A model generated the notes under the pieces. It had not been told where the DNA came from and ran no database searches. It worked only from the letters and a program-made list of their open reading frames with translations. The position numbers were made by a program, and so were the translations under genes. Positions 2 to 22,937 of a stretch of 64,000 bases of DNA are shown here, piece by piece. Every line of letters starts with the position of its first letter. Positions within the stretch are counted from its first letter, which is position 1. The DNA is from an uncultured Draconibacterium sp. (GTDB lineage: Bacteria; Bacteroidota; Bacteroidia; Bacteroidales; Prolixibacteraceae): assembly GCF_963677155.1 (NCBI RefSeq), contig NZ_OY781884.1, positions 4,088,501-4,152,500 of the forward strand, given 5' to 3'.

Positions 2-1369
2 CCAAACTATCAACCGCTGAAACGACAAGATTTATCGTTCCGCGTCAATTATGCTTACGATAACAAGTATGTGGCTCAAGTAGATTTGAGTTACTCAGGA
101 AGTATGTTTTTGCAAAAGAACGATCGTTTTAACCTTTATCCGACTGTTGGTGCGGGATGGGTTGTTAGTAATGAAGACTTTTTATCCGATAGCAAAGTGG
201 TAAATTATCTGAAACTTTATAGTTCGCTTGGCTATTCCGGAATTGAATATGTAGGACTTAGCGGATTTAATTCGTACTATTTGTTTGAGACTTTGTGGCA
301 AAACGTTGATAGCTGGCAGCCTGGAATTGACGGAAGTAAAGGTGCTACTGTTAATGTTTACAATATTATGCAGGCGGGAAGCGAAAGCTTCGATCTTCCT
401 AAACTAAGATTTTTTAATGTTGGGGTTCAGAGTAGCTTGTTTAACAATTCGCTGGCTGTTGAATTAAATTACTACAATCGAAACGAAAGCAAGCTCTTTT
501 CTTTGAGACAGTATGAAACACCTTCGATTTACGGCGGGTTCGATTTCTTGCCGGCATCCAATTTCGGTGAAAACCAGTATTGGGGATTGGACGGGCTTGT
601 TCAATATAGTAACAAAGCAGGAGAACTGGAATATTCATTAGGTATTAATGCTACTTATAATCGGGGCAAAGTGATAACTATTGATGAACCTGTTGCTTTA
701 GAAGAATACCGAAAAAGAACCGGAACACAAATCGACAATATCTGGGGATACAGTGCCGAAGGATTGTTCCAAACAGAATCGGAAATTGAGTCGCGTGAAA
801 TCTCTCAAAGTTGGGGAGCCGTTCAGCCCGGTGATATTAAATATGCAGATTACAACAACGATAAAGTTGTTGACGAAAAAGATGTTCATGATTTAGGAGA
901 GCATACTCCACGTATTTATTATGGTCTTAATTTGAACCTTAAATATAAAGGTGTGGCCTTAAATGTAATCGGCACAGGTCAGGCAGATGGCAAATATTAT
1001 ATTTCCGATTATGAGTGGATTAATGATCCTAATAGTAACTTTTCGGCGCCGATGATGGATCGTTGGCCCCAAACAAATAATTATCCGAGATTATCTTTGC
1101 AGCCTCAGAATAACCAACTGTTGTCGTCTTTTTGGTTAAAAAGTGGAGCTTATTTTACATTGAAAAATGTAGAGCTAAGTTATACGGTACCGCGAAGAAT
1201 TTCTCAGAAATTCTTAATGAGCAATCTTAAGGTCTTTGCCCAGGGGAAAAACCTGTTTACATTGTCGGAGTACAGTAAGTATGGAATTAATCTTGAAAAT
1301 AAGTTCGCAGGATCGTATTCTTATCCAATTATGAGAACTGTGACCCTAGGGGTGGCATGTAAGTTTTAA
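2..1369 (+). CDS. SusC/RagA-family TonB-dependent outer-membrane receptor, C-terminal part (cut by window edge)
   Basis: The frame is open from base 2, so the gene starts before the window; the GTG at 71 is internal. About 455 residues are visible. They are the last beta-strands of a SusC-type barrel: repeated aromatic/polar strands, an extracellular stretch rich in Asp and Asn (YADYNNDKVVDEKD, a common SusC loop motif) and a C-terminal strand ending in Phe, as expected for an outer-membrane barrel. In the family the barrel imports oligosaccharides or peptides with energy from TonB, under a SusD lid. A SusD-like gene starts 17 bases downstream, which confirms the pairing. The plug and any STN domain are outside the window, so the regulation type cannot be read. 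Substrate unknown. Confidence 0.93.
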   Translation, partial: PNYQPLKRQDLSFRVNYAYDNKYVAQVDLSYSGSMFLQKNDRFNLYPTVGAGWVVSNEDFLSDSKVVNYLKLYSSLGYSGIEYVGLSGFNSYYLFETLWQNVDSWQPGIDGSKGATVNVYNIMQAGSESFDLPKLRFFNVGVQSSLFNNSLAVELNYYNRNESKLFSLRQYETPSIYGGFDFLPASNFGENQYWGLDGLVQYSNKAGELEYSLGINATYNRGKVITIDEPVALEEYRKRTGTQIDNIWGYSAEGLFQTESEIESREISQSWGAVQPGDIKYADYNNDKVVDEKDVHDLGEHTPRIYYGLNLNLKYKGVALNVIGTGQADGKYYISDYEWINDPNSNFSAPMMDRWPQTNNYPRLSLQPQNNQLLSSFWLKSGAYFTLKNVELSYTVPRRISQKFLMSNLKVFAQGKNLFTLSEYSKYGINLENKFAGSYSYPIMRTVTLGVACKF

Positions 1370-1386: not shown

Positions 1387-3564
1387 ATGAAACGAATAGA
1401 ATATATTATATTATTAATTGTAGTTTTTGGATTTGCATCTTGCGATTATCTTGATCCAAGACCCATTCAGGATCAAACAACAGAAGACTTGTGGAGCCAT
1501 GCTACTTACGGAGAGGGTATACTAACCAAGGCCTATGCTGAGCTACGAGGGGGATATCCTGTGGAGTTTGATTACTATACCGATAATGCAGTACCAAATG
1601 TTACGGGGAGTAACCTTCTGGCACTGGGTTCGTGGACTGTTCAAAACAACGGAATTGGCGATTGGGATCAGTGCTACGAAAACATTCGCTACCTGAACTT
1701 GTTTCTCGAGAATGCAGAAGAATTGCCGTATAAGATTTCTGATCCGCAGAAAGACTCGCTGATAAACATTCACCGTATTGGAGAAGCTTATTTCCTTCGT
1801 GCATGGTACCAGTGGAAATTATTACGCGACTATGGAGGTTATGCTGCTGGAGGTACAGAGGCCCTGGGTTTTCCGATTGTTACTCACGTGCTGGCGCAGG
1901 ACGAAGAACTTGATATTCCGCGTAATACTTACGAAGAATGTGTAGCGCAAATTGCCAAGGATTGTGACGAAGCGATAGCTGTTTTGCCCAATGATTATTT
2001 GAATGGGACCGACGAGTTAACAGGATTGGTTAACCGCGGAAGAGCTTCTGCTTTAGCAGCCAAAGCTCTTAAAGCACGTATGTATTTATATGCAGCTAGT
2101 CCTGCTTATTCGGGGGCTGAGCAGTCAAAATGGGAACGTGCTGCCGAAGCTGCCGCTGAAGCTATTGATGCCGCGGGAGGATTAACCGAGCTGGATGAGT
2201 TTGGTAATTTCAATAATGCATCAAGTATCGATAATATCTGGATAACTCCTACGTGGAATGGCACCTTGGAAAACCAGTATTATCCACCTTCACTATATGG
2301 AGAGGGAACTTGTAATCCATCGCAGGAACTTGTTGATGCTTTTCCTGCAAAAGACGGTTATCCAATTACCGAAAGTAGTATGTATAAGAGCGGAATTCCA
2401 TACAAGAATCGCGACGGAAGATTTGAACGATTCATATTCTTTAACCAGAATTTGTATAACTCTACCTACATAAAAACGGTTGAAGGTGGTGCTGATGCAC
2501 CAGGTGGTTTGAGCCAATATGGAACACGTACTGGTTATTATATGAAAAAGCTATTGAGTAAAAATGTTCGTCTCACTCCTGGAGATGAGACAACAGATGT
2601 TCATTTCTATACTTTCTTCAACAAAAGCGAATTATATCTGAATTTTGCAGAAGCTGCAAACGAAGCTTATGGCCCAATGGATGCAACGCTTGGTTTTTCA
2701 GCATTAGATGCGTTAAAGAAAATAAGGGAACGTGCCGGAATTGATTCTGACTTGTCTTCGGAAAGCTATGATGATGCATATCTTGAAGAACAAGCAGCAC
2801 AAGGAAAAGAGGCGTTTAAAGAGCTTGTTAAAAATGAAAGAAGACTGGAGCTTTGTTTCGAAGGACATCGTTTCTGGGATGTACGACGTTGGAACGATCC
2901 GTTGAATCACAAAGTAAGCGGGGTTAGAATTACAATTTCAGATGAGCCTCTGGAGCAAGACCCGGTTAATGTGGCTTTAGCTTCGGTTCCTACTACCGAT
3001 TTTGTATCATCTTGGGAAGATTTAAATTCTGTAAATAACGGATACAATACTCCATCTTCGTCAGAAGATAAAAGTCATGGTATTTATGGTAACTGGGACA
3101 GTAACGGTGAATGGAGATATGTGCAATACGATTTCCCGGAATACCGCACTGTAACAGGTACTAGCACAACTCATACTATCGAAAAATCGGATGTTTACTG
3201 GTTTTCAGATGGAGGAGGTCTGCTGGCTCCTGATAGTCTTTATATTCAGTATTGGGACAATAATACTTCTACTTGGAATGAAGTGGATAATGTTGACAGT
3301 TATGGAACAGCACTTGATCAATGGAACGTAAGTAATTTCGATCCCGTTGCAACAAGTAAAATTCGAATCAACTTCAAAAGTGATATTAAATCTTGTGGTA
3401 TAATCGAATGGAGAGTTTGGGGAACGCAAACAAATGCTCCCAACTTTAACTACGAATACCAGACTGTTGAGAATCATACTTTTCAGGATTATATGAGGTA
3501 TGTTCCTGTACCATACACGCAAACGCTTATAATGAGTAATCTTAAACAAAACAGTGGATGGTAG
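1387..3564 (+). CDS. SusD/RagB-family surface lipoprotein with an inserted discoidin-like (F5/8 type C) domain
   Basis: The N-terminus is a lipoprotein signal ending GFASC (lipid-bearing Cys19). The SusD fold follows: N-terminal TPR-like region, the motif with RAWYQWKLLRDYGG, and the late conserved FKELVKNERRLELCFEGHRFWDVRRW. In a usual SusD the chain then runs quickly to a closing N-P-G-W-like end. Here about 155 residues (roughly 527-682) intervene and resemble a galactose-binding/discoidin domain (SSWEDLN, YGNWDSNGEWRYVQYDF, ending IIEWRVWG), after which the ordinary tail ending QNSGW resumes. At 725 residues it is well above the usual 500-600. It should bind ligand with the SusC upstream; the extra domain may add a glycan- or surface-binding site. 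The next gene carries a similar insertion. Confidence 0.93.
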   Translation: MKRIEYIILLIVVFGFASCDYLDPRPIQDQTTEDLWSHATYGEGILTKAYAELRGGYPVEFDYYTDNAVPNVTGSNLLALGSWTVQNNGIGDWDQCYENIRYLNLFLENAEELPYKISDPQKDSLINIHRIGEAYFLRAWYQWKLLRDYGGYAAGGTEALGFPIVTHVLAQDEELDIPRNTYEECVAQIAKDCDEAIAVLPNDYLNGTDELTGLVNRGRASALAAKALKARMYLYAASPAYSGAEQSKWERAAEAAAEAIDAAGGLTELDEFGNFNNASSIDNIWITPTWNGTLENQYYPPSLYGEGTCNPSQELVDAFPAKDGYPITESSMYKSGIPYKNRDGRFERFIFFNQNLYNSTYIKTVEGGADAPGGLSQYGTRTGYYMKKLLSKNVRLTPGDETTDVHFYTFFNKSELYLNFAEAANEAYGPMDATLGFSALDALKKIRERAGIDSDLSSESYDDAYLEEQAAQGKEAFKELVKNERRLELCFEGHRFWDVRRWNDPLNHKVSGVRITISDEPLEQDPVNVALASVPTTDFVSSWEDLNSVNNGYNTPSSSEDKSHGIYGNWDSNGEWRYVQYDFPEYRTVTGTSTTHTIEKSDVYWFSDGGGLLAPDSLYIQYWDNNTSTWNEVDNVDSYGTALDQWNVSNFDPVATSKIRINFKSDIKSCGIIEWRVWGTQTNAPNFNYEYQTVENHTFQDYMRYVPVPYTQTLIMSNLKQNSGW

Positions 3565-3602
3565 TAGCTAACTTCATGAATAATAACGTAAAATCATTTA
3601 CA

Positions 3603-5039
3603 ATGAGAAATATACTATTAATAATATTGTTGGCCGGATTCTTATCTGGATGCTATGATGAATACAGAATCGATTATCCGTATTCAACCGTTGCTTTTTC
3701 AGATGCTTCAGGAGGAGTTGATGCTCCCGGAATATTGGGGCGTACCGTAGTGAAAAACGAAGGATTGAGTCTGGAAATGGGCGTGTATCTGGCCGGAGTG
3801 CTTGAAAATAGTGAGGAGAGATGGGCTAAATATGAAATTGATGAGAGTCTTTTGGAAGGTACATCTTATGAACTTTTGCCTGCTTCTTATTATGAATTAA
3901 GTAACGACAGCAAATTTGTTATAAAACCAGGTGAATTTACAGGACGGGTAAAGGTTACGCTTGATTCTGTTGCTTTTTTAAACGATCCAAGAGCCGTAAA
4001 TTATAAAATGGCTTTACCGATCAGGTTAATCGAGACTTCTGAAGATTCAATTCTGCAAACACAAAGTACAAAAATAATTGCAATTAAATATATTAACCAT
4101 TACGAGGGTTTTTATGATAATAACGGAACGTTTGTTACTTTAAGCGATGCAGGTGAAGAATTAAATTCAGGAAGCTTTGAGAATGTCATTACGGGAACTA
4201 CTATTAATCTGGACACCATAAAAATCAATGGCCTTATTAATGGTATTGGAAAAGATTATATGGCCAAATTATTGGTGAAGGATGATAATTCGCTGAGCCT
4301 TGAATATCTTCCGAAAGAACCAGAAGAGGTTGTGGTAGAAAATGCTGCTTTAGAGAGTGAGCCTTCAACTTCGTATGTATCTTCATGGGAAAATTTGAAT
4401 GGAATTAATGATGGACAGGAACCTGCTAATTCAGCAACTAAAAATGAAGGAGGAGCATATGGTAACTGGCCAAATGCCGAAACATGGAATTGGGTTCAAT
4501 ATGATTTTTCACAGTATTACGAAATCTCAAAATCAGAAGTATACTGGTGGACAGATGGCGGAGGTGTTTTAATCCCTTACAATTCTTACGCAGAATATTG
4601 GGATCCAACAACTGAAGAGTGGAAATTACTTTCAGATCCGGTTGTAAATGGCGAGAGTATTTCTGCTTCGGATTATGGAAATACAACACTGTTCTCGGGC
4701 GAGAATCCTGGGCCAGGAAATGAAGCAGATCAGTTCAATATAACAACTTTTGAGCCTGTAATTACTGATAAAATTCGTCTGCACTTTATTGCGGTAGAAT
4801 CACAAGGAATTCATGAGTGGAAAGTCTGGGGTAAGAAATCAAAACTATCTGGATATGAACAAGAACCAATTGAAAGTATTAGTTTGATTGGAGATAATAA
4901 CAGTTTCGATCCGGAAACCAATACTGTTTCACTCAACTATCGCGTTGATTATAAAGAAAAAGAGCACTATACAAATGTTTCTACAACAATGGTATGGCGG
5001 AACAGGGTACGTGACGGAGTAAACGAATGGAGAAGATAA
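3603..5039 (+). CDS. DUF1735/DUF4361-type surface lipoprotein with an inserted discoidin-like domain
   Basis: The frame opens at 3558, overlapping the SusD stop, but the ATG at 3603 gives a clean lipoprotein signal (MRNILLIILL..LSGC), so I choose it; 478 residues. The first about 240 residues look like the DUF1735 (BT_3987-type) domain found beside SusCD pairs. Residues about 245-412 resemble the discoidin-like insert of the neighbouring SusD (SYVSSWENLN, YGNWPNAETWNWVQYDF, SEVYWWTDGGG, closing HEWKVWG). The chain ends with the usual family close, RNRVRDGVNEWRR. The insertion therefore splits the C-terminal domain just as in the SusD. The likely role is outer-surface binding of the substrate imported by this SusCD. 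A hairpin terminator follows the stop. Confidence 0.85.
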   Translation: MRNILLIILLAGFLSGCYDEYRIDYPYSTVAFSDASGGVDAPGILGRTVVKNEGLSLEMGVYLAGVLENSEERWAKYEIDESLLEGTSYELLPASYYELSNDSKFVIKPGEFTGRVKVTLDSVAFLNDPRAVNYKMALPIRLIETSEDSILQTQSTKIIAIKYINHYEGFYDNNGTFVTLSDAGEELNSGSFENVITGTTINLDTIKINGLINGIGKDYMAKLLVKDDNSLSLEYLPKEPEEVVVENAALESEPSTSYVSSWENLNGINDGQEPANSATKNEGGAYGNWPNAETWNWVQYDFSQYYEISKSEVYWWTDGGGVLIPYNSYAEYWDPTTEEWKLLSDPVVNGESISASDYGNTTLFSGENPGPGNEADQFNITTFEPVITDKIRLHFIAVESQGIHEWKVWGKKSKLSGYEQEPIESISLIGDNNSFDPETNTVSLNYRVDYKEKEHYTNVSTTMVWRNRVRDGVNEWRR

Positions 5040-5047
5040 TTAATAAT

Positions 5048-5086
5048 ACAGAGGGTAGGTTTTGTGCTTGCTCTCTGTGCTTTTTT
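5048..5086 (+). terminator. Hairpin terminator after the SusC/SusD/DUF1735 genes
   Basis: ACAGAG at 5048-5053 pairs with CTCTGT at 5073-5078, and the stem extends inward with several G-T pairs to about 12 bp around a TTTTGTG loop. A run of six T follows at 5081-5086. It lies 9 bases after the DUF1735 stop. It also argues against any start for the next gene before about 5090. Confidence 0.65.
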
Positions 5087-5186
5087 ACGGTACTGTGAAA
5101 GATTTATTGTAAAACAGACGTTAGGAACGGGACTTATATACATGAAAATGGAAGAAAGAAACAATAGTTTTAGTAGAAGCTTTCAA

Positions 5187-7178
5187 ATGAAGATTTTTAA
5201 CTTCAATACATTGTTAGTCATACTTTCTCTTGTTCTGAGTATATCAGGATGTAGCAGCAATAATATAGATGAGGTTGATGAAAATGAGAATCAACCAGAG
5301 AAGGAACAGAACGACAATCAAACAGATAATGTCTTCGATGATAGTAAGTTTTATGTTCCTCAGGAGTGGAGAGATAATGATTTTGACAACGAAAACAGTA
5401 GATGGTCGTATGCGAGAAGTCAGCAATCGGAACACTTCATTGTATTCTGGGAACCCAATTTTGGCTTAGATCCAAATGCCAGTAATGTGCCGGATGCAAT
5501 GCGTGTTAATATTGATGACCTTTTAGCAAAAGCAGAAATCTTTTTCAATGTGAATGTTAATACTTTGGGTTTTGCGGAACTAGGTACAGGAAAATCAAAT
5601 CTCGATAACTATAAAATGCAGATCTACTTGTTGTATCAACCCGAGTGGTTAGCAACTGGTAGCGGATACGATGATAAGATTGGTGCTCTCTGGGTAGATC
5701 CAAGTACGTGCAAACCGGTTGGCCAAACAATTGCACACGAAATTGGACATAGTTTTCAATATCAGGTGTACGCCGATTTGCTGGCCTATGGGGGAATTCA
5801 AAATGATCTTACCCGTGGCTTCCGATATGGTTTTGGAGGAAATGGAGGAAATGGTTTTTGGGAACAATGTGCACAATGGCAATCTTTCCAGTCGTACCCA
5901 GAAGAGGCATTTAGCTCGTATAATTTTGGCGAGTATATGAAAAACTATCATCGCCATTTCGGGCATGAATGGCACCGCTACGCAAGTTACTGGCTGCACT
6001 ATTACTGGACAGACAAACACGGTATTGATTTCATAGGCAAATTATGGCGCGAAGCAGTTGCACCGGAAGATCCGATTCAGGCATATATGCGAATAACAGG
6101 ATTGTCGGTAGATGAAATGAATGCTGAGCTTTATGATGCTGTCGCTCATTTGGTAACCTGGGATATTGATGCTATCCGATCGATTGGAAATGATTACATA
6201 GGACAATACGAATATAAATTTTACGAAGCTCAGGATGGGGCGTATCAGGTAGCTTACAGTAAATGCCCGGGAACAACTGGTTACAATGTTATTCCTTTAA
6301 ATGTGCCTGAAGCGGGAACAGTGGTAACAACTTCGTTTACTGCAATAGCACCAGGCTCTTCACTTGCATCTGGCGATCCGGGCGAATATATCGATAACGA
6401 AACAACGGCGACAACAAGCAATTACAACAGCGGCGAGTTAACACGAGCCGGCTGGCGTTATGGTTATGTTGCTTTGCTTGAATCGGGAGAACGGGTTTAT
6501 GGTGAAATGAACCGCGAAACCTCGGCAGATATTGAATTTACTGTTCCTGCAGGTTGTAAAAGGTTGTGGTTTGTAGTTCTTGGTGCTCCTTCAACATACG
6601 AGGCTCATGCTTGGGATGAACAAGAAAGTAACGACGATCAATGGCCATATAAGGTGAAATTTACCAACACCGATCTTTTAGGGAATGTGGTAATTGATCC
6701 GAATGACGAACCACAAGATCTTACATTGACTTATGATATTTCATTTGCCGCTGATGCTGAAGCCTATTCGGGGACTACGGTAAATCTGAATAATAATGGC
6801 GATATAAATAAAGTAGTTCAGGCGCTTACAATGCAACCGTCTGAGATTTCAGCGGCGTTGTTAGCCGAAAAATCGACACCACAGGAAGGTAAAATCGCTT
6901 TTGCTGCTGTTGATTCGGATGGATCATTAAATTACAACACAACCGCAACCGGTTACGGGTTCTGGTTTGATAGCAATGGAGATGTTATTGGCTGGGGTAG
7001 CGACAACGACAGTAAAGTGTTTTCTGAATTTACCGCTTCCAATTTCGAATTTAGCGTTGGTCAGTTTCCCGGAAAATCAAGTGCGGGAGATTCGTATACT
7101 ATAAAAGAGGCATTGGTTTATCAAAAAGATGGTAAGCAGTATCAGGTTACCTTTGTTTTTAATATTACTGTAAATTAA
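5187..7178 (+). CDS. Lipoprotein with HExxH metallopeptidase-like DUF6055 domain and C-terminal DUF4859 domain
   Basis: The frame opens at 5064, inside the preceding terminator, and has ATGs at 5142 and 5187. Only 5187 puts a standard lipoprotein signal (NTLLVILSLVLSISGC) at the N-terminus, so I use it; 663 residues. An acidic Asn/Gln/Glu-rich linker follows the Cys. The central region resembles DUF6055, with AHEIGHSFQ (His184, Glu185, His188), a zinc-metallopeptidase signature, and many Trp/Tyr residues. The last about 150 residues match the beta-rich DUF4859 pattern (GYGFWFDSNGDVIGWG), common in surface proteins of glycan loci. I infer a surface-anchored peptidase or zinc-dependent enzyme; no substrate can be read. 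It follows a SusCD set but is separated from it by a terminator, so it may have its own promoter. Confidence 0.7.
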   Translation: MKIFNFNTLLVILSLVLSISGCSSNNIDEVDENENQPEKEQNDNQTDNVFDDSKFYVPQEWRDNDFDNENSRWSYARSQQSEHFIVFWEPNFGLDPNASNVPDAMRVNIDDLLAKAEIFFNVNVNTLGFAELGTGKSNLDNYKMQIYLLYQPEWLATGSGYDDKIGALWVDPSTCKPVGQTIAHEIGHSFQYQVYADLLAYGGIQNDLTRGFRYGFGGNGGNGFWEQCAQWQSFQSYPEEAFSSYNFGEYMKNYHRHFGHEWHRYASYWLHYYWTDKHGIDFIGKLWREAVAPEDPIQAYMRITGLSVDEMNAELYDAVAHLVTWDIDAIRSIGNDYIGQYEYKFYEAQDGAYQVAYSKCPGTTGYNVIPLNVPEAGTVVTTSFTAIAPGSSLASGDPGEYIDNETTATTSNYNSGELTRAGWRYGYVALLESGERVYGEMNRETSADIEFTVPAGCKRLWFVVLGAPSTYEAHAWDEQESNDDQWPYKVKFTNTDLLGNVVIDPNDEPQDLTLTYDISFAADAEAYSGTTVNLNNNGDINKVVQALTMQPSEISAALLAEKSTPQEGKIAFAAVDSDGSLNYNTTATGYGFWFDSNGDVIGWGSDNDSKVFSEFTASNFEFSVGQFPGKSSAGDSYTIKEALVYQKDGKQYQVTFVFNITVN

Positions 7179-7362: not shown

Positions 7363-10071
7363 ATGAAACCAAAGAATATTCTTTTCTTTCTACTGTGTTG
7401 GAGCCTTTTTATGAATTCCGGAGCTTTTGCTTCATCCTTTGTTGCTTCTCCTGATTCGATTGACATCGATAAGGGATCGTATGAATTCACTACCCCCGAT
7501 TTTAATATTGAAATACTAAAATCATCACACACGGTGGCCGGGCTGCATCCAATCTCCGAACCTGAATTTGACTTTACTCCTGGCGAGTTATTAGCCAAAA
7601 GAAACAAAGCAGGTTTTTATCACCTTGGTGATATCAATTTTCGGGTGAAAACCGAAGGTGCAAACGATTGGACATCTTTCTCATCGGCTGCTTCGCGCAA
7701 GAGTGTTACAACAGTAGAACCGAAAAGCGCTAATCAATTAGCTGTTTCTGATCTGAGTGGAATTCTTGAAAACAGTCCGGTTCAGGTATTGCGTTACTGG
7801 GAAAAGAAAGACGGACATTTGGTTTTGCGTTTCGAGATAAAAAATACATCAGCAAAAGCTGTTGAAATAGGAGCTTTGGGAATTCCTCTAATCTTCAATA
7901 ATAACCACGACCAGAAAACACTGGACGAAGCACATGCCGAGAATGTTTTTTACGATCCGTACATTGGTATGGATGCCGGTTATTTGCAGGTAATTCGTTT
8001 AAAAGGTAGCGGTCCCGTTTTGTTGGTACTTCCTTATGGCGAAACTCCGTTTGAGGCGTGGAGGCCACTGCTTGACGATCCTACCCGAAGAGGAATTACT
8101 TTTGAAGGTTTTCATGAGTGGATGCCCTTAAGCTTAGCTTACGCTGAAAACGAGTGGAAAGAAGCTACTCCCTGGAACAGTCCATCTTCAAAAATTTTAA
8201 AGCCCGGCAAATCGGTTAGCTACGGTGTACAGTTTGTACTTACCGATGCCATTAAAAACATCGAATCTGCACTGATTGAAAATGATCGTCCGGTTGCATT
8301 TGGTGTGCCTGGATACGTTGTTCCGCAGGATGTTAATGCTGATTTGTTTTTAAAGTACAGCCAAAAGGTAAAAAGTATGCAGGTTGAGCCTGTAGGTGCA
8401 TTGGAACTGAAAAAACAGGAAACAACAAAAAATGGTTGGATAAAATATGCTGTTGCCGGAAAAACATGGGGCAGGGCACGTTTAACCATCACATATAAAG
8501 ATGGCTTAAAGCAAACCATTAACTACAAAGTTATAAAACCAGAGGAGCAGGTGGTTGCCGACAACGGAAACTTTTTAATGACAAAACAGTGGTTTGACGA
8601 CGAAGACGATCCATTCAATCGTGCTCCGTCGGTAATCACTTACGACTACGAAGAACAAAAACAGGTAACCGAAGATAGTCGTGCCTGGATTTGCGGATTG
8701 AGCGACGAAGGTGGTGCCGGTTCATGGTTAAATGCAGTAATGAAACAACTGGTACAACCGGATAAGAAAGAGGTGGTTATGTTGGAAGACTTCGTTCAGA
8801 AAACAATCTGGGGCGGAATTCAGTACAACGAAGGACGTGAAAAATATGGTGTTCGTAAAAGTATGTTCTACTACGAGCCTGATTCTATGCCTGCCGGAAC
8901 ATACAGCAAAGATGTAAATTATAATACATGGGCTGCCTGGGATAAAAAACATGCTGAAACTGTTGAGCGTTCATTCAATTATCCTCACGTGGCAGCTGTA
9001 TACTGGGTGATGTACCGTTTGTCCAGAAATTATGAAGGACTGGTATCGCAGCAGACATGGGACTGGTACTTAATGAATGCCTATCAAACTACAATGTCAA
9101 TGGTTGAACTGGCTCCTTATTATGCACAGTTTGGTCAAATGGAAGGGAGCGTATTTGTTCATATTCTGGAAGATTTGAAAGCTGAAGGAATGTGGGAATA
9201 TGCAAGAAGACTGGAAGGAATGATGAAACGCCGAGCCGATCATTGGTCTACGTTAAACTATCCGTTTGGTAGCGAAATGCCATGGGACTCAACGGGTCAG
9301 GAAGAAGTTTATTCGTGGGCGAGATATTTTGGTATGGGGCAAATGGCTGAAACAACATTAAAAGCCATTTTAGCTTATATGCCAACTATTCCTCACTGGG
9401 CTTACAATGGAAATGCTCGTCGTTACTGGGATTTTCTTTATGGTGGAAAATTGTCGCGTATTGAGCGCCAAATTCATCATTATGGGTCTGGTATTAATGC
9501 AATCCCTGTTTTATATGAATACAAAAAACATCCTGAAGACTTGTACCTGCTACGTGTTGGTTACGGCGGTTTAATGGGATCAATCTCGAATATTACGAAA
9601 GATGGCTTTGCACCCGCAGCATTTCACTCGTTCCCGTCAACGCTTAAAAACGATGGGTTTTCGGGCGATTACGGAAGTGGATACTACGGTTATGCAATAA
9701 ACACATCAACCTACTTAATGCATGACGACGAATTTGGCTGGTTGGCTTTTGGTGGTAATATTGCTGAAGATGGCGATGTGGTGAAAGTTGATTTGACAAC
9801 AGCTGCTAAGTCACGTGTTTATGTAGCGCCGCTAAAAATGTGGTTGACGCTTGACGCCGGTAAATTTAAAGCCTTCTCGTACAATCAGGCAACCGGAAAA
9901 GTTGAAGTGGAGCTAAACAAAGCAAATGAATTTACTCCAAATGCATATTTAAGAATCAAATCATTTGACGATGACGAAGCCGTTAGTAGCATTGCCGGCC
10001 TTGAAAAAAATGAGCGTGGACAATATGTTATTCCACTTAAAGATGAAGTGGTAAAAGTTGAAGTAAATTAA
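7363..10071 (+). CDS. Large secreted DUF5695-family protein, possible glycoside hydrolase
   Basis: 902 residues with a Sec signal (about 1-24, ending GAFASS). The N-terminal pattern TTPDFNIEILKSSHTVAGL and the following FDFTPGELLAKR, GFYHLGDINFRVKTEG are typical, as I recall, of DUF5695. The first half is probably a beta-sandwich. The second half (about 540-780) is rich in Trp, Tyr and helices (YWVMYRLSRNYEGL, WSTLNYPFGSEMPWDSTGQEE) and resembles the (alpha/alpha) barrel of glycosidases. The short PFGSEMPWDSTGQEEVY segment, with acidic residues in an aromatic setting, is a plausible active-site strip. The family has no assigned activity that I can name with confidence. The next gene starts 27 bases on, suggesting an operon with the S9 peptidase. 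A weak 7-bp hairpin (7187-7204) lies upstream. Confidence 0.68.
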   Translation: MKPKNILFFLLCWSLFMNSGAFASSFVASPDSIDIDKGSYEFTTPDFNIEILKSSHTVAGLHPISEPEFDFTPGELLAKRNKAGFYHLGDINFRVKTEGANDWTSFSSAASRKSVTTVEPKSANQLAVSDLSGILENSPVQVLRYWEKKDGHLVLRFEIKNTSAKAVEIGALGIPLIFNNNHDQKTLDEAHAENVFYDPYIGMDAGYLQVIRLKGSGPVLLVLPYGETPFEAWRPLLDDPTRRGITFEGFHEWMPLSLAYAENEWKEATPWNSPSSKILKPGKSVSYGVQFVLTDAIKNIESALIENDRPVAFGVPGYVVPQDVNADLFLKYSQKVKSMQVEPVGALELKKQETTKNGWIKYAVAGKTWGRARLTITYKDGLKQTINYKVIKPEEQVVADNGNFLMTKQWFDDEDDPFNRAPSVITYDYEEQKQVTEDSRAWICGLSDEGGAGSWLNAVMKQLVQPDKKEVVMLEDFVQKTIWGGIQYNEGREKYGVRKSMFYYEPDSMPAGTYSKDVNYNTWAAWDKKHAETVERSFNYPHVAAVYWVMYRLSRNYEGLVSQQTWDWYLMNAYQTTMSMVELAPYYAQFGQMEGSVFVHILEDLKAEGMWEYARRLEGMMKRRADHWSTLNYPFGSEMPWDSTGQEEVYSWARYFGMGQMAETTLKAILAYMPTIPHWAYNGNARRYWDFLYGGKLSRIERQIHHYGSGINAIPVLYEYKKHPEDLYLLRVGYGGLMGSISNITKDGFAPAAFHSFPSTLKNDGFSGDYGSGYYGYAINTSTYLMHDDEFGWLAFGGNIAEDGDVVKVDLTTAAKSRVYVAPLKMWLTLDAGKFKAFSYNQATGKVEVELNKANEFTPNAYLRIKSFDDDEAVSSIAGLEKNERGQYVIPLKDEVVKVEVN

Positions 10072-10098: not shown

Positions 10099-12339
10099 AT
10101 GAAGCACTTTTTATCCGTTTTTTTAGTTGTGCTGTTTGCTTATGCAAGTTCAGCACAAATCACAAAAGAAGATTACGCGAAAGCCGATTCTGTAATGAAA
10201 CTGAGTGAGTTGGTTTACGATCAGGTAACGCAAATTACATGGATCGATTCGTCGTCGGTATTCTGGTATCGTATAAAAACGCGCGATGGAATGAAATATC
10301 AACTGGTTGATGCGCAAAAAGGATCGAAGAAAGTTGCTTTTGATACCGATAAACTGGTTGATGCGTTGAATCAACAGCTGGAGAAGAATATTACGGCAAA
10401 AGACTTGATTTTGAGCAATCTTAAATTTGATGCCGATAAAAAGACAATTCATTTTGATTTTAAAAAGGCTCACTGGACCTGTGAGCTGAAGAAATATGAG
10501 TTAAAGAAAGACTCGGTTGAAAAAGATCGAAAGGGCAATGGCTATTGGGGAAGTTTTTCTGATGAAAAAGGAAACGATCCAGTGCCTTCCCCCGATGGGA
10601 AGTGGGAAGCTTTTATTAGGGAGAGCAACGTTTTTATTAAAAATAAGGAAACAAACAAAGCTATTCAGTTGAGTTTTGATGGAGCTCCCAGTGATTTTTA
10701 TTCGTCGTATTTTTCATGGTCGCCTGATTCTAAAAAGCTGGCAGTAAACAAAGTTCGCGACGCTGAAAAGCGTGAGATATTTTTTGTTGAATCATCGCCC
10801 AAAGATCAGTTGCAGCCCATTTTGCACAAACGCGATTACCGTAAACCCGGCGATGCCATGCCAATAAAACATCCGGCTTTGTTCGATGTGGAAAGCAAAA
10901 AGCAAATCCCGGTAAATACCGATGCTTTTGAACACCAGTTTAGCCTCTCCAATCCAAAATGGAAAGCGGACGGTTCTGCATTTACTTTTGAGTTTAACCA
11001 ACGTGGTCATCAGGCCTACAAAGTAATTACGGTAGATGGTGAAAATGGTGATGTTAAGGTATTGATAGATGAAGAGAGCAAAACGTTTATCGATTACAGC
11101 GGAAAACGTTATCGTTACGATTTAGAAAAAACTAACGAAATAATTTGGGCATCAGAACGCGATGGCTGGAATCATCTTTACCTAATCGATTCAAAAACCG
11201 GTAGAGTGAAAAATCAGATCACAAAAGGAGATTGGGTGGTGCGAAATGTAATAAAAGTAGACGATGAGAGTCGTACGATATTCTTTTACGGATCGGGCAA
11301 AAATCCAGGTGAAGACCCGTATTATTTGCATTGCTACAAAGTGAATTTTGATGGTAGTGTTTTAACTGATCTAACGCCGGAGAAAATGACTCATGATGTG
11401 TCGTTTTCAAAAGATATGAGCTATTTTACCGATACCTACTCTACGGTTGAAACGCCACCATTTACAGTGGTGCGCAGTGCCGAAGACGGAAAAGTGCTGG
11501 TGGAATTAGAAAGAACGGATATTTCATCGTTGCTCGAAAAAGGCTGGAGAGCACCTGAGCCGTTTGTGGCGAAAGCCCGCGACGGCAAAACGGATATTTG
11601 GGGTAATATTTATCGTCCAACCAATTTCGACGAAAACAAAACCTATCCGATAATTGAATACATTTATGCAGGGCCACACGGTTCGTTTGCTCAAAAAAGT
11701 TTTAGTCCCGGGCACTATGCTTATTCCGGACTTGCTGAATTAGGTTTTATAATTGTGCAAATGGATGGAATGGGAACGTCAAACCGTTCGAAAGCTTTTC
11801 AGGATGTATGTTGGAAGAACCTGAAAGATGCCGGTTTCCCCGATCGTATTTTATGGATAAAAGCTGCAGCTGAAAAATACAGTTACATGGATACTACACG
11901 AGTTGGTTTGTTTGGCGGCTCGGCTGGTGGGCAAAGTACTTTAGCCGGATTGTTATTTCATCCTGAGTTTTATAAAGCAGGTGTTTCGTCGTGTGGATGC
12001 CACGATAACCGAATGGACAAAATCTGGTGGAACGAGCAATGGATGGGCTATCCGATTGGCCCGGAATATGCTGAATGCTCGAATGTGGTGAATGCCGATA
12101 AACTTCAGGGTAAATTGATGTTGATTGTTGGCGAATTGGATGATAATGTTGATCCGGCATCAACAATGCAGGTAGCCGATGCCCTTATCAAATCAAAAAA
12201 GGATTTTGAGCTGGTGGTTCTGCCCGGGATGAACCATACTTTAGGTGGAACTTACGGAGAACAAAAACGACGTGATTTTTTCGTTCGTAATTTCTTAAAG
12301 CAGGAAACTCCGGATTGGAATGCTGAAACATCAAATTAG
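10099..12339 (+). CDS. S9-family dipeptidyl peptidase (DPP IV-like), exported
   Basis: 746 residues with a signal peptide (about 1-19, ending YASSA). Residues about 90-460 form the DPP IV-type N-terminal beta-propeller (SPDGKWEAFI, FSWSPDSKKLAVNKVRD, WASERDGWNHLYLID). The C-terminal alpha/beta-hydrolase domain holds the triad: Ser608 in GLFGGSAGG, Asp681 in GELDDNVDP and His713 in GMNHTLGG. Members of this family remove dipeptides, often X-Pro or X-Ala, from peptide N-termini, here presumably in the periplasm. It sits 27 bases after the DUF5695 gene and 21 bases before a metallopeptidase gene, so all three are probably co-transcribed. The context suggests the locus processes a glycopeptide or proline-rich protein. 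Confidence 0.92.
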   Translation: MKHFLSVFLVVLFAYASSAQITKEDYAKADSVMKLSELVYDQVTQITWIDSSSVFWYRIKTRDGMKYQLVDAQKGSKKVAFDTDKLVDALNQQLEKNITAKDLILSNLKFDADKKTIHFDFKKAHWTCELKKYELKKDSVEKDRKGNGYWGSFSDEKGNDPVPSPDGKWEAFIRESNVFIKNKETNKAIQLSFDGAPSDFYSSYFSWSPDSKKLAVNKVRDAEKREIFFVESSPKDQLQPILHKRDYRKPGDAMPIKHPALFDVESKKQIPVNTDAFEHQFSLSNPKWKADGSAFTFEFNQRGHQAYKVITVDGENGDVKVLIDEESKTFIDYSGKRYRYDLEKTNEIIWASERDGWNHLYLIDSKTGRVKNQITKGDWVVRNVIKVDDESRTIFFYGSGKNPGEDPYYLHCYKVNFDGSVLTDLTPEKMTHDVSFSKDMSYFTDTYSTVETPPFTVVRSAEDGKVLVELERTDISSLLEKGWRAPEPFVAKARDGKTDIWGNIYRPTNFDENKTYPIIEYIYAGPHGSFAQKSFSPGHYAYSGLAELGFIIVQMDGMGTSNRSKAFQDVCWKNLKDAGFPDRILWIKAAAEKYSYMDTTRVGLFGGSAGGQSTLAGLLFHPEFYKAGVSSCGCHDNRMDKIWWNEQWMGYPIGPEYAECSNVVNADKLQGKLMLIVGELDDNVDPASTMQVADALIKSKKDFELVVLPGMNHTLGGTYGEQKRRDFFVRNFLKQETPDWNAETSN

Positions 12340-14033: not shown

Positions 14034-16187
14034 ATGCGTATTAACAGACTTATAAGGTTAATTATTGGAGTGATGGCAGGAGTTCTTCTCCTTTCATCGT
14101 GTGCGAATAAAACAACAGAACAACAAAACGCACACATTTCTAATCCGGTTTTGCCCGGTTGGTTTGCCGATCCGACGATTAAAAAATTTGGCGATATTTA
14201 TTACATCTACGCCACTACCGATAATGAAATGCTGGCATCGGGAGCACCAACTGTTTGGTACAGCCGCGACTTGCAAAACTGGTACAACTATATTATGGAG
14301 GTGCCTACTTTAAATTCGGTGGCTTTGCGTAATTTTTGGGCACCCGATATTATGCAAGGCAAAAATGGTCGTTATTACCTGTATTTTGGAAATTGCCAAA
14401 CAGGGTGCAACATATATGGCTATGTTTCGGATACACCGGTTGGCCCGTGGAAGAAACTACACGATGATGATACGCCGGTAATTGCACAGAATTATCCGAT
14501 TGACGGATTTCCATCGTTGGATGCGCAATTTATTCAGGACGATGATGGCCGGATTTATGGCTACTGGGGAACCTGGGTGCATTACAACAGTGGCTATGCA
14601 GTTGGCGAGTTAAATGCCGAAACAATGGATGTAATGTCGAACTCCACCAACATTCCGCTGGAGCAAACGCCAAATCCATTCGAGGCTCCTTATATGATGA
14701 AAAAGGGTGATAAATACATTCTGATGTATTCTGCCGAATCATGCCACAACGAAACATACAAAGTTCTTTATGCTTATGCCGATAGCCCGTATGGAACATT
14801 CACTCCGGGCGAGAACAACCCGATTTTGCAGACCAATGAAGACGGAACAACTCACGGTCCGGGACATCATTCGGTATTGCAAAATGGAAATGATTATTAC
14901 ATTGTTTATCACAAACACGATGTTCCGTTTACTGCCGGAGGAATGGCGCGTCAGGTGTGTATTGACAGCATGATCTTTGAAAATGACTCAACGATAAAAA
15001 CTGTGGTACCTTCGCAAAAAGGTATTAAAGCTTTTATTCCGTCTGAAGTGCCTGAAGATATCGCTTATAAAGCTACGGTGTCGGCTTCTTCATTTTATCA
15101 TCTGCAGTCGCCTGCTTATGATTATCAATATTTACCCGGTTTTGCTTTTGATAATGACAATGCTACCATGTGGAAAGCTGCCGATAATACTTTTCCACAA
15201 AGCCTAAGCATAGATTTAGGCGAAGAAAAGAATATTAAACGAATTGCTACACAGTTTGAATTCTCACCCTACTATTATCAGTATAAAATTGAATATTCTT
15301 GCGATAACACAACTTGGCAGGTTTATGCTGATCGTACGGAAAACCGCATACCCGGAAGTCCGATGATTGACGATAATGATGTGAAAGCGCGCTACCTGAA
15401 ACTTACGATTTTGGGAACCGAAAAGACTGGAACTTTCGCTGCGGTGTGGAATATGAAAGTTTACGAAGAAGAATTTGATATTCCATTAAACCTGAAAAAT
15501 AAACCATCGAAAAATGAGCCGGGTGCAGTAAGTTCACAAAGTATGATTGTTGGATTTAATGCCAATTCGCTTTCCGGTAAATCATTCAATAAATTAGCAA
15601 ACGCTGGGACATTGGGTGGCGATCTGGTTCGAAAAGGAAATATAACGATTGTTACTGACAAAGAAACCGGTATAAAAGCAATTGATTTCGCCAAAGGGGC
15701 TTTGGAACTGGGTGGAATTGCTGTACCAAGAAGTTTGGAGTGGAACGGCGCATTTACAATTTCAACATGGGTGAAAAACCCGGAAGTAAGCGACAGAGAT
15801 GAGTGTCTGGCTTCATGGTGCGACCGAAGCGCATATTATTTGGCCAATTCATACAATGCCGTTCATTACAACAAAAGTAATTACGGGGCTGTTGCACACC
15901 TTGATGGGCATTTTGATTTGCCCTACAACAACGTTCCCGAAGCCAACAAATGGCATCACATTGTAGTGACTTTTGATGGGGTAGTGGAAAAAGTTTATGT
16001 TGATGGTGTGCTGGACACTGCACAAAATATGCTGTTGTCGTCTGCTGTTAAAAATGCAAAGATCAGGATTGGTGCTTCGGATGCAGGAGAATATTATACC
16101 GGGCTTATGGCTTCTTTTCAAATGTATGATTATGCCTTGTCGCAATCTGAAGTTTCGCATCGATACCACGAATCAGCTTTGAAATAA
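14034..16187 (+). CDS. GH43-family glycosidase (probable alpha-L-arabinofuranosidase) with discoidin-like and LamG-like domains, lipoprotein
   Basis: 717 residues. The signal ends LLLSSC, so the protein is lipid-anchored. The five-bladed GH43 propeller spans about 37-320. Asp46 in WFADPT is the expected base, Asp163 in FPSLDAQF the pKa modulator and Glu235 in YSAESCHNETY the acid. A discoidin-like (F5/8 type C) domain covers about 345-485 (ATMWKAADNTFPQSLSIDLG). A LamG/concanavalin-like domain covers about 505-715 (WHHIVVTFDGVVEKVYVDGV). GH43 enzymes release arabinose or xylose from plant side chains. The arabinose catabolic operon immediately downstream supports arabinofuranosidase or arabinanase activity, but a xylosidase cannot be excluded. 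It has its own terminator, so it is a separate unit from araR. Confidence 0.9.
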   Translation: MRINRLIRLIIGVMAGVLLLSSCANKTTEQQNAHISNPVLPGWFADPTIKKFGDIYYIYATTDNEMLASGAPTVWYSRDLQNWYNYIMEVPTLNSVALRNFWAPDIMQGKNGRYYLYFGNCQTGCNIYGYVSDTPVGPWKKLHDDDTPVIAQNYPIDGFPSLDAQFIQDDDGRIYGYWGTWVHYNSGYAVGELNAETMDVMSNSTNIPLEQTPNPFEAPYMMKKGDKYILMYSAESCHNETYKVLYAYADSPYGTFTPGENNPILQTNEDGTTHGPGHHSVLQNGNDYYIVYHKHDVPFTAGGMARQVCIDSMIFENDSTIKTVVPSQKGIKAFIPSEVPEDIAYKATVSASSFYHLQSPAYDYQYLPGFAFDNDNATMWKAADNTFPQSLSIDLGEEKNIKRIATQFEFSPYYYQYKIEYSCDNTTWQVYADRTENRIPGSPMIDDNDVKARYLKLTILGTEKTGTFAAVWNMKVYEEEFDIPLNLKNKPSKNEPGAVSSQSMIVGFNANSLSGKSFNKLANAGTLGGDLVRKGNITIVTDKETGIKAIDFAKGALELGGIAVPRSLEWNGAFTISTWVKNPEVSDRDECLASWCDRSAYYLANSYNAVHYNKSNYGAVAHLDGHFDLPYNNVPEANKWHHIVVTFDGVVEKVYVDGVLDTAQNMLLSSAVKNAKIRIGASDAGEYYTGLMASFQMYDYALSQSEVSHRYHESALK

Positions 16188-16506: not shown

Positions 16507-17187
16507 ATGAAACACTATACTAAACATCCGAAACATTTTGTAGCAGTTGACTGCGTAATTTTGGGTTACGACGAAGGCGAACTTTGTTTGTTGCTTTATC
16601 CTCGGGGTTTTGAGCCATCAAAAGGTGCGTGGTCGCTAATGGGGGGATTTGTTGAGGATAACGAATCGTCGGACGCAGCCGCAAAACGCGTATTAAAACA
16701 AACTATAGGTCTTGAAGATATTTTTATGCAGCAGGTAGCTGCATTTGCCGATCCTGACCGCGATCCGGAAGCAAGGGTAATTAGTCTTGCCTATTATGCT
16801 TTGGTACGAATGGATGAACATGATAAAGCCTGTGTTAGAGAGAATGGTGCACATTGGTGGCCCATTTCAGAATTGCCTGAAATGATCTTCGATCATGGAC
16901 AAATGGTTGAGCAGGCATTGGTGAAATTACAACAGGAAGCCGGTTATCGCTTAATAGGAAAGGAGCTGCTGGCCGATAAATTTACCTTACTTCAACTGCG
17001 CAAATTATACGAAGCTATATTTCAGCGTGAGTTTGACCCCGGAAATTTCAGAAAGAAAATCTTATCGCTTGATGTGTTGGAGCGCCTGAATGAAAAAGAT
17101 TTATCAGAATCGAAAAAAGGTGCTTTTTATTACACCTGCAAAGGCGAAGTAACCGAGCGGGGCCTTGATCGTATCGTAAAAGTTTGA
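16507..17187 (+). CDS. araR: AraR, Nudix-type transcriptional regulator of arabinose use
   Basis: 226 residues. Residues about 10-140 are a Nudix fold and about 150-226 a winged-helix DNA-binding domain (FTLLQLRKLYEAIFQREFDPGNFRKKI). The Nudix box is broken: after Gly47 and Glu53 the catalytic REUxEExGU block reads RVLKQTIGL (61-69), keeping Arg61 but replacing the three catalytic Glu by Val, Gln and Thr. The domain therefore should bind a ligand and not hydrolyse one. This architecture matches the characterised arabinose-responsive AraR of Bacteroides thetaiotaomicron. The next genes are araA, a symporter, araD and araB, which fits exactly. A palindrome just upstream suggests autoregulation. 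The stop overlaps the beginning of the longest araA frame, but the real araA start is 44 bases on. Confidence 0.9.
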   Translation: MKHYTKHPKHFVAVDCVILGYDEGELCLLLYPRGFEPSKGAWSLMGGFVEDNESSDAAAKRVLKQTIGLEDIFMQQVAAFADPDRDPEARVISLAYYALVRMDEHDKACVRENGAHWWPISELPEMIFDHGQMVEQALVKLQQEAGYRLIGKELLADKFTLLQLRKLYEAIFQREFDPGNFRKKILSLDVLERLNEKDLSESKKGAFYYTCKGEVTERGLDRIVKV

Positions 17188-17231
17188 GAGCATTTAAAAT
17201 AATATATACATATAAAATAGAATCAAAGAAT

Positions 17232-18743: not shown

Positions 18744-18776
18744 TAGAAACTAAATCAAAAAAATAAATCAACTTTT

Positions 18777-20456: not shown

Positions 20457-20474
20457 AATAAAAAAGAATAAATT

Positions 20475-21158: not shown

Positions 21159-21217
21159 TTGTCCATCAGTTAAAAAAATCAAGGACAAAAAGTTGGTGGA
21201 GAAGTGAGTTCTCCACC
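21150..21217 (+). promoter_or_regulatory. Stacked RNA hairpins between araD and araB
   Basis: GGACAAT-A-ATTGTCC (21150-21164) is a perfect dyad over the araD stop codon. A further GGACAA at 21183-21188 could pair instead with TTGTCC at 21159-21164, giving two exclusive folds. Next comes a perfect 9-bp hairpin, GGTGGAGAA/TTCTCCACC (21195-21217, loop GTGAG), followed by the T-rich stretch GGCTTTTGCTCCTTTTT. The set could be an attenuator, a processing site or a leaky terminator that sets araB level apart from araD. Confidence 0.5.
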
Positions 21218-21245
21218 GGCTTTTGCTCCTTTTTAAACAAAAAAA

Positions 21246-22913: not shown

Positions 22914-22937
22914 TAACCAAATAAATAAATAAAACCA

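What the first reader, a model, noticed from the sequence alone, without database searches (positions are those of the whole stretch)
2965..4840. Matching discoidin-like domains inserted in adjacent SusD and DUF1735 lipoproteins
Both proteins have an ordinary family core, then about 155-170 residues of a galactose-binding-like domain, then the ordinary family C-terminal tail (QNSGW in SusD, RDGVNEWRR in the other). The two inserts share SSWE(D/N)LN, YGNW, W(R/V)(Y/Q)-VQYDF, SDGGG/TDGGG and W(R/K)VWG. Insertion of the same module into two unrelated neighbours just before their conserved ends suggests domain copying within the locus and a shared ligand on the outer surface.
Basis: partly seen in the sequence, partly recalled or inferred. 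Interest (0 to 1): 0.7.

Follow-up and report, generated by a model that had tools for sequence, protein, structure and literature searches.

The report
Twin sugar-binding domains in uptake proteins
Two neighbouring outer-surface proteins of a Draconibacterium sugar-uptake system each carry a copy of the same sugar-binding-type domain plugged into a loop, and that domain is otherwise found mostly on enzymes thought to break down arabinose-coated plant cell-wall material, which hints at what this system eats.

Summary
SusD (window 2959-3432) and the DUF1735 lipoprotein (4326-4841) hold homologous inserts (48% identical over 145 aligned residues; BLASTP E 4e-34) in otherwise unrelated hosts. The insert is absent from the 28 other SusDs and 15 other DUF1735 proteins aligned, and enters the same hairpin in all 10 SusDs that have it. 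The DUF1735 model matches discoidin/CBM32-type domains. Fourteen loci in Bacteroidia, found through the module, have it in DUF1735, ten of them also in SusD; none in SusD alone. The copies are old (57% nucleotide identity); one origin within the locus is plausible, direction unresolved.

The larger clue is the module's other partners: of 107 module-bearing proteins, 66 also hold DUF6055/Svx-type or HEGIH putative peptidases, GH121, GH127 or DUF5695. Characterised relatives of three act on arabinosylated hydroxyproline-rich glycoproteins (extensins). The window continues with DUF6055, DUF5695, a dipeptidyl peptidase, GH43 and an L-arabinose operon. Best explanation: both modules bind L-arabinosylated glycans, probably on such glycoproteins, and bring them to SusC. 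No ligand was tested; in 4 of 10 loci the SusD copy lost conserved loops.

The parts
2..1369 (+). SusC-like TonB-dependent transporter, 3' part (whole gene 1007 aa, begins upstream of the window)
   Evidence: L034 6847-9870
1387..3564 (+). SusD/RagB lipoprotein, 725 aa, Cys19 in a lipobox-like stretch
   Evidence: PF07980 116.6 bits, PF14322 81.7 bits
2959..3432 (+). discoidin/CBM32-like module inserted in the C-terminal beta-hairpin of SusD (between strands 508-518 and 686-697 of the model)
3558..5039 (+). DUF1735 (BT_3987-like_N) lipoprotein at the susE position; probable start near 3603
   Evidence: PF08522 42.6 bits; start of the L116 homologue
4326..4841 (+). homologous module inserted in the C-terminal beta-domain of the DUF1735 protein
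5064..7178 (+). DUF6055 + DUF4859 protein, HEIGH motif at residues 225-229; distant relative of Svx/AvrXca gluzincin peptidases
   Evidence: PF19527 554.8 bits; NF040510 71.9 bits, below its cut-off 625; motif
7363..10071 (+). DUF5695 protein; five module-bearing Firmicutes proteins match DUF5695 in the same chain
10099..12339 (+). S9 prolyl-oligopeptidase-type (DPP IV-like) peptidase
14034..16187 (+). GH43 with F5/8-type C and LamG domains (this discoidin domain passes the Pfam cut-off, unlike the inserts)
16507..24059 (+). L-arabinose catabolic genes: NrtR/AraR-type Nudix regulator, AraA, SSF symporter, class II aldolase/epimerase, FGGY kinase, aldose 1-epimerase
   Evidence: same order in D. 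mangrovi, L227

Best explanation
Shown: SusD and its DUF1735 (SusE-position) neighbour each carry a copy of one discoidin/CBM32-like module, inserted in the host fold, as an inherited trait of one clade of Bacteroidia uptake loci. Inferred: the module is a glycan-binding domain for L-arabinosylated substrates, most likely the arabinosyl-hydroxyproline decorations of hydroxyproline-rich glycoproteins (extensin type). The DUF1735 copy holds substrate on the surface beside the secreted peptidases and glycosidases. The SusD copy adds a second site on the lid of the SusC transporter so that released glyco-oligosaccharides or glycopeptides are handed over to it. The downstream genes then finish the job: DUF6055 putative peptidase, DPP IV-like peptidase, GH43, DUF5695 and the L-arabinose isomerase pathway. 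Origin (inferred): the DUF1735 protein had the module first and a copy moved to SusD within the locus; some lineages lost the SusD copy or never had it.
For: Homology and insertion. Fold: Foldseek of the DUF1735 model (pLDDT 86, pTM 0.55) gives DUF1735 structure 3n91 first and, lower, CBM32/F5-8 chains (4zy9 TMt 0.79, 4lks 0.65, 7wdt); the listing shows no aligned ranges, so that these match the module is my inference. Profile search of the PDB: 7wdt E 0.002. Pair in 10 loci, DUF1735+module in 14 (plus the window), hosts in starred clades. Ligand hint: of 107 distinct module proteins 13 carry DUF6055 (15 with Pfam), 11 GH121 (HypBA2-like), 14 GH127, 5 DUF5695, and 21 are 880-aa-type HEGIH proteins related to the DUF6055 profile (hhalign E 4e-6). 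In the module tree the clade of the SusD and DUF1735 modules also holds five DUF6055 fusions (L140, L144, L148, L151, L164). In genome samples drawn without regard to the locus, 41 of 47 loci inspected are GH127 proteins. Literature seen: Svx cleaves extensins and needs arabinan recognition (PMC13164431); HypBA2 and HypBA1 act on beta-L-arabino-oligosaccharides of hydroxyproline-rich glycoproteins, and a HypBA2 construct without the C-terminal part that holds its F5/8 domains is much less active (PMC7263609). L-arabinose operon in the window and in D. mangrovi. AraA in 12 of 12 genomes with the module in DUF1735 against 31 of 149 sampled genomes of the order. Own genome: GH127-family matches at four places (control 3 of 14 genomes) and one PF05544 gene, proline racemase family (control over cut-off in 1 of 14).
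Against: No ligand test. Window copies fall below Pfam's F5/8 cut-offs. SusD copies in L121-L124 lost the PxxSxD loop and changed YGNW and DGGG; L123 has sulfatases next to the pair and L122 a GH31, so those loci may use another substrate. The AraA hits lie on another contig than the pair in 11 of 12 genomes and 3 Mb away in the twelfth (drafts, so 'another contig' is not proof of distance), one hit is partial and three hold stops: AraA is linked in the locus only in the window and D. mangrovi. DUF6055 is absent from the 19.9 kb around the pair in D. mangrovi and was seen near the gene pair in 6 of 14 loci. The window DUF6055 is far below the Svx equivalog cut-off and its HExxH-to-E gap (37) is outside the published Svx range. 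None of the window proteins that I scanned is a GH127 or GH121 (not every ORF was scanned). GH127 dominance fits any beta-L-arabinofuranoside, not extensin alone. Genomes in the AraA comparison are related to each other.
Confidence: 0.5

Rival explanations
1. The modules bind another arabinose- or galactose-containing glycan (arabinan, arabinogalactan, arabinogalactan protein), not extensin-type glycoprotein; the common thread is arabinose rather than hydroxyproline glycosides.
For: GH43 and L-arabinose operon in the window; an alpha-L-arabinofuranosidase C-terminal domain protein beside the pair in L174; 41 of 47 module loci inspected from genome samples are GH127; CBM32 is generally galactose-binding (PMC7263609).
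Against: Repeated fusion of the module to DUF6055/Svx-type and HEGIH putative peptidases and to HypBA2-like GH121 points to a glycoprotein.
Confidence: 0.27
2. The two modules hold the SusE-like protein to SusD (or each to a common partner), i.e. they are assembly domains of an outer-membrane uptake complex rather than glycan-binding domains.
For: Among 80 loci the SusD module was found only together with a module in the neighbouring DUF1735 protein; matching domains in two parts of one surface system; loss of conserved loops in four SusD copies without loss of the domain.
Against: DUF1735 carries the module beside a plain SusD in 4 of 14 loci; the module is common on enzymes; no complex was modelled.
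Confidence: 0.13
3. The SusD copy is a decaying or neutral passenger; only the DUF1735 copy matters.
For: SusD modules diverge faster than their host (window to L026 73% against 86%, to L116 57 against 73, to L121 44 against 62), DUF1735 modules do not (83 against 78, 78 against 66, 53 against 50).
Against: Reading frame and 27-29 of 33 family-conserved positions kept in 6 of 10 SusD copies over long divergence.
Confidence: 0.1

Closest known systems
DUF1735 + F5/8-type C lipoproteins of polysaccharide utilization loci (PMC11216935)
   Same: DUF1735 N-terminal domain with a discoidin-type domain, lipoprotein, at the susE position; F5/8 is reported there as one of the commonest C-terminal partners
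   Different: here the module is inserted inside the C-terminal beta-domain, the window copy scores below Pfam cut-offs, and SusD carries the same module
SusD/RagB family
   Same: core, lipobox-like Cys, adjacency to SusC, C-terminal QNxGW tail
   Different: extra 158-residue module in the last hairpin; absent from the 28 other homologues aligned
CBM32 / F5/8 type C (discoidin) domains, including those of HypBA2 (GH121)
   Same: predicted beta-sandwich; HypBA2-like enzymes carry this module by our profile
   Different: inserted into binding/uptake proteins rather than part of an enzyme; ligand unknown
Gpd glycoprotein-deglycosylation complex of Capnocytophaga canimorsus (PMC3128124, passages)
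   Same: SusC/SusD system for glycoproteins with a surface lipoprotein (GpdF) whose C-terminal 136 residues resemble galactose-binding domains
   Different: the passages place the domain on GpdF, not on its SusD; different substrate (N-glycoproteins)
Svx/AvrXca extensin metallopeptidases (PMC13164431)
   Same: the DUF6055 neighbour and the module-DUF6055 fusions are related to it by profile
   Different: window protein scores 71.9 against an equivalog cut-off of 625 and ends in DUF4859

Membership tests
SusD/RagB | PF07980 and PF14322 above curated cut-offs | tested here: met
   116.6 against 23.1 and 81.7 against 27 bits
SusD/RagB | next to a SusC-like transporter | tested here: met
   SusC ends 1369, SusD starts 1387; SusC beside it also in L026, L116-L118 and L120-L124
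DUF1735 (BT_3987-like_N) | PF08522 above cut-off | tested here: met
   42.6 against 25.9 bits
BT_3044-like C-terminal domain | PF14274 above cut-off | tested here: not met
   15.1 against 23.1 bits; the insert splits this part, which may explain it
F5/8 type C / CBM32 | PF00754 or PF22633 above cut-off in the window copies | tested here: not met
   DUF1735 copy 13.9 against 28.2; SusD copy no hit to either; relatives L125 and L126 pass PF00754
F5/8 type C / CBM32 | beta-sandwich fold of the family | tested here: met
   for the DUF1735 copy, Foldseek against CBM32 and discoidin chains (aligned ranges not shown); the SusD model's listed matches are SusDs and say nothing of the module
F5/8 type C / CBM32 | carbohydrate binding | not testable with these tools
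   needs protein
Svx/AvrXca peptidase (window 5064-7178) | NF040510 equivalog cut-off | tested here: not met
   71.9 against 625 bits
Svx/AvrXca peptidase (window 5064-7178) | HEXXH followed by E after 8-28 residues | tested here: inconclusive
   HEIGH present; first following E after 37 residues; published spacing from PMC10815107 passages

The most novel reading that the evidence does not exclude
The module is a binding domain dedicated to arabinosylated hydroxyproline-rich glycoproteins, shared by the peptidases, the beta-L-arabinofuranosidase/arabinobiosidase enzymes and, in one Bacteroidia clade, by the SusD lid and the SusE-like protein of a dedicated uptake system: a locus for eating extensin-like plant cell-wall proteins in which capture, digestion and import use the same recognition domain.
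Probability: 0.4. Interest if true: 0.75.

Novelty: new variant of a known kind. Interest (0 to 1): 0.55.

Why it matters
The ligand of a SusD protein must usually be guessed from its neighbours. Here an inserted module with a telling set of enzyme partners predicts the ligand and makes it directly testable. Bacterial attack on extensin-type glycoproteins is on record for Bifidobacterium (HypBA1/HypBA2), for a plant-pathogen peptidase (Svx) and, from search listings only, for Xanthomonas homologues of the Hyp enzymes (PMC6085000) and in silico for Latescibacteria (PMC4454575). No Bacteroidota uptake locus for them stood in the listings (12 of 70 papers shown; 12 of 23 shown). If right, this gives a candidate binding module and marker for the substrate across several phyla.

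Tried and rejected
A single-protein scan of genome contigs with the whole SusD found no relative; the alignment-based scan did. That the insert is an ordinary part of SusD or DUF1735: rejected. That the donor was the 880-aa protein of the same gene cluster: not supported, its copies fall in another starred clade of the module tree. A recent local duplication: rejected by 57% identity of aligned bases and by the pair's presence in other genera. Gene conversion between the two copies: L117 has 61% identity between its own two modules against 50-51% to the window copies, and DUF1735 modules of L117, L118 and L120 group with SusD modules at 98/95 in the 108-row tree, but the 33-row tree and its AU tests do not settle it. 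Whether the SusD insert was gained once and lost, or gained more than once: unresolved; the four plain SusDs nest inside the insert clade only weakly (90/88, 81/38), and holding the 10 insert SusDs as one clade is not rejected (p 0.079). PDB by sequence gave nothing for the SusD module alone (two antibody chains, E 0.65 and 0.83) and weak carbohydrate-enzyme matches for the profile (best E 0.002). No model coordinates were available, so where the module points relative to SusC or a ligand was not examined. The pattern count was not used. Papers: PMC11216935 passages and section 14; PMC7263609, PMC10815107 and PMC3128124 passages; PMC13164431 abstract, outline and part 1 of 2 of the discussion; all other papers only as search listings. 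SusD as a lid on SusC is recalled knowledge.

Full report
What is there. The window's genus is Draconibacterium: the same-genus genome G010 shares its contig length (448401) and locus with L115, D. mangrovi GM2-18, and G005 its contig length (200494) with L135, an uncultured Draconibacterium. The window opens with the end of a SusC gene, a SusD gene (1387-3564) and a DUF1735 lipoprotein gene (3558-5039). SusD residues 525-682 and DUF1735 residues 257-428 are homologous: 123 bits, E 4e-34, 69 of 145 aligned residues and 250 of 435 aligned bases identical, Smith-Waterman 339 against 41 +/- 7.5 for 1000 shuffles; the host proteins without these parts do not align. GC content of the inserts (0.386, 0.395) is like that of the window (0.394).

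It is an insertion. I aligned 30 SusDs (window, G010 and 28 others; of 32 matches at E <= 1e-60 listed from 61 genomes, two had no locus): only the window and G010 have the insert, the 28 others pass straight from the strand of GVRIT to VExRxY and share the tail. For DUF1735 I aligned 17 of 20 host-part matches: only the window and G010 have it. In all 10 SusDs that carry the module it enters the same hairpin. The AlphaFold2 model of SusD (pLDDT 83, pTM 0.79) has host strands 508-518 and 686-697 on either side of the insert, whose confidence is mixed (block means 46-91); the DUF1735 insert is better predicted (model pLDDT 86, pTM 0.55). Foldseek lists 3n91 and other DUF1735 structures first for the DUF1735 model, then CBM32 and discoidin chains (4zy9 TMt 0.79, 4lks 0.65, 7wdt); the ranges are not shown, and I take these to be the module. 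The SusD model's listed matches are SusDs, 3qnk first. I therefore call the module a divergent member of the discoidin/CBM32 superfamily; neither window copy reaches a Pfam cut-off for it, some relatives do.

How widespread. Within the genus 2 of 37 genomes (some incomplete) have the pair. In evenly drawn samples of the class (396 genomes) and order (393 genomes), with up to 10 candidates scored per genome, 16 and 57 genomes have a module at E <= 1e-6. Of the 47 loci returned by these two calls, 41 are GH127 proteins by my profile, 2 are the window's own, 1 (L195, G460) is a pair, and L111, L196 and L198 are none of these; G460 is the record of L118. Matches without a locus were not inspected. 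A scan of the 84,980-species collection with the module alignment gave 118 candidate stretches, 83 relatives and 80 loci kept. Among these, 9 loci have SusD+module beside DUF1735+module (L115-L118, L120-L124: Draconibacterium, Plebeiobacterium, Petrimonas, and unnamed Bacteroidales or Bacteroidetes genomes), 4 have DUF1735+module beside a plain SusD (L147 Salegentibacter, L154 Wenyingzhuangia, L174, L177), none has SusD+module alone. L167, a contig end with a DUF1735+module fragment, was not counted. With the window this makes 14 loci. They were found through the module, so the scan could not show members of the clade that lack it altogether.

Descent. On the SusD core (module cut out) the 14 SusDs form one starred clade apart from the others (100/100), with the four plain members inside, weakly placed; the 10 with the insert as one clade is not rejected (p 0.079). 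On the DUF1735 core the 14 form one starred clade. The module tree has 108 rows; matches under 75 bits (unless in SusD) or short, and duplicates L115 and L028, were left out, and with them most Bacteroidota GH127 copies. In it all SusD and DUF1735 modules lie in one starred clade of 35 rows (98/90) with 11 others: five DUF6055 fusions (L140, L144, L148, L151, L164), one GH127 (L164), the L167 fragment, L119, L131, L139 and L153. The 880-aa copies lie in another starred clade. A starred subclade of 14 holds the 10 SusD modules, the DUF1735 modules of L117, L118 and L120, and L119. With 33 rows (both L164 rows and L167 left out, L156 added) the inner order is poorly supported; one clade of all DUF1735 modules against everything is rejected (p 0.0008), against SusD modules only it is not (p 0.21), nor is one clade of SusD modules (p 0.18). 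A single transfer between the two neighbours in an ancestor is the simplest reading, from DUF1735 to SusD because DUF1735 has it in all 14 loci, but the trees do not prove the direction. DUF1735 modules have changed about as much as their host or less, SusD modules more than theirs. Of 33 positions conserved in at least 85% of 55 other modules, the 14 DUF1735 copies keep 25-30, SusD copies 27-29 in 6 of 10 and 18-20 in 4 of 10 (L121-L124); the 55 themselves average 31.4 with a minimum of 22.

What the module goes with. I classified 107 distinct module-bearing proteins of the loci and L026-L030 (at least 50 bits; L115 and L028 dropped as duplicates; the window pair not included): SusD 9, DUF1735 13, DUF6055 13, GH127 14, GH121 11, DUF5695 5, unassigned 42. 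Of the 42, L150 and L158 have DUF6055 by Pfam and 21 belong to the 880-aa type, all 21 with HEGIH and related to the DUF6055 profile by hhalign (probability 87, E 4e-6); Pfam itself gives DUF6055 below cut-off in one (18.4 against 27 bits) of three sent. That makes 66 of 107 in this set, 22 SusD or DUF1735, 19 other. ORFs of at least 400 aa without the module in the same loci hit these families in 27 of 163 cases. The labels come from profiles built from a few seeds; the proteins sent to Pfam or NCBIfam agreed. NCBIfam's HypBA2 model gives 780-988 bits to three long Firmicutes proteins, below its cut-off of 3200. The bearers are in Bacteroidota, Bacillota, Pseudomonadota and Planctomycetota.

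Why that matters. HypBA2 (GH121) and HypBA1 (GH127) of Bifidobacterium work on beta-L-arabino-oligosaccharides of hydroxyproline-rich glycoproteins; HypBA2 has three C-terminal F5/8 domains, and a construct without its C-terminal part is much less active (PMC7263609, passages). Svx, related to DUF6055 by profile overlap (L165: NF040510 540 bits and PF19527 231 bits over the same part), cleaves extensins and depends on recognising their arabinan side chains (PMC13164431). The window locus continues with DUF6055 (HEIGH), DUF5695, a DPP IV-like peptidase, an unassigned gene, a CRP-type regulator, GH43 and an L-arabinose operon, the last kept in D. mangrovi. In four other Draconibacterium genomes (G005, G009, G013, G034) DUF6055, DUF5695, the 880-aa gene and the DPP IV gene are kept (with a CotH gene shown in G005 and G013) behind a different SusC and a 563-567-aa protein without a match to our SusDs, and the module is then on the 880-aa protein. 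At least one of DUF6055, DUF5695 and GH127 lies near the gene pair in 10 of 14 loci, DUF6055 itself in 6; none was seen in L118 (contig ends), L123, L124 and L154 (most flanks 6 kb or less). AraA was found in all 12 other genomes searched, 8 with the pair and 4 with a plain SusD, against 31 of 149 of the order sample (Fisher 2e-8 after leaving out G000 and G460; genomes are related, so this overstates it), but not in the same neighbourhood.

Judgement. The insertion and its inheritance are shown. Glycan binding is inferred from the fold; the arabinosyl-glycoprotein ligand is inferred from domain partners and gene context and is the part to test. DUF1735 with a discoidin domain is known (PMC11216935), and so is a glycoprotein-degrading SusC/SusD system with such a domain on another surface lipoprotein (PMC3128124). 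A SusD with one inserted, and the pair, did not appear in the listings (20 of 22 papers shown; 15 of 74; 15 of 34; 1 of 1); the library lacks most subscription journals.

Noticed in passing
L026:10821-13463, L027:7180-9819, L028:7692-10331, L029:6236-8875, L030:6350-8989: An 880-aa protein with N-terminal module, fn3, a conserved HEGIH motif and a T9SS tail sits beside the DPP IV gene, behind DUF5695; the window lacks it (DUF5695 ends 10071, DPP IV starts 10099).
   Followed up: partly
L121, L122, L123, L124 SusD genes: The SusD module has lost the PxxSxD loop and replaced DGGG by ECPTCG, perhaps a disulfide, while the neighbouring DUF1735 copy is intact; L122 has a GH31 and L123 sulfatases next to it.
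   Followed up: partly
L225:6149-8377: A 742-aa protein with two copies of the module, near two other module-bearing genes (698 and 854 aa).
   Followed up: no
L224:2843-4622: Module near the N-terminus of a protein directly after a very divergent SusD-like gene (susE position), with an Shr-like_HID domain.
   Followed up: no
L228, L229, L230, L231: Same DUF6055-DUF5695-DPPIV backbone behind a different SusC, a 563-567-aa protein and a 633-634-aa protein that matches the DUF4859 end of the window's DUF6055 protein: the uptake cassette seems to be exchanged within the genus.
   Followed up: partly
window 12361-13194: 277-aa protein with no Pfam or NCBIfam match, 81-85% identical in the same place in five relatives.
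   Followed up: no
G000:C1:981550-982527: Own genome encodes a PF05544 proline racemase family protein (the family includes hydroxyproline epimerases, recalled), far from the window.
   Followed up: no
window 16507-17187: NrtR/AraR-type Nudix regulator next to araA, a likely arabinose sensor for the operon.
   Followed up: no
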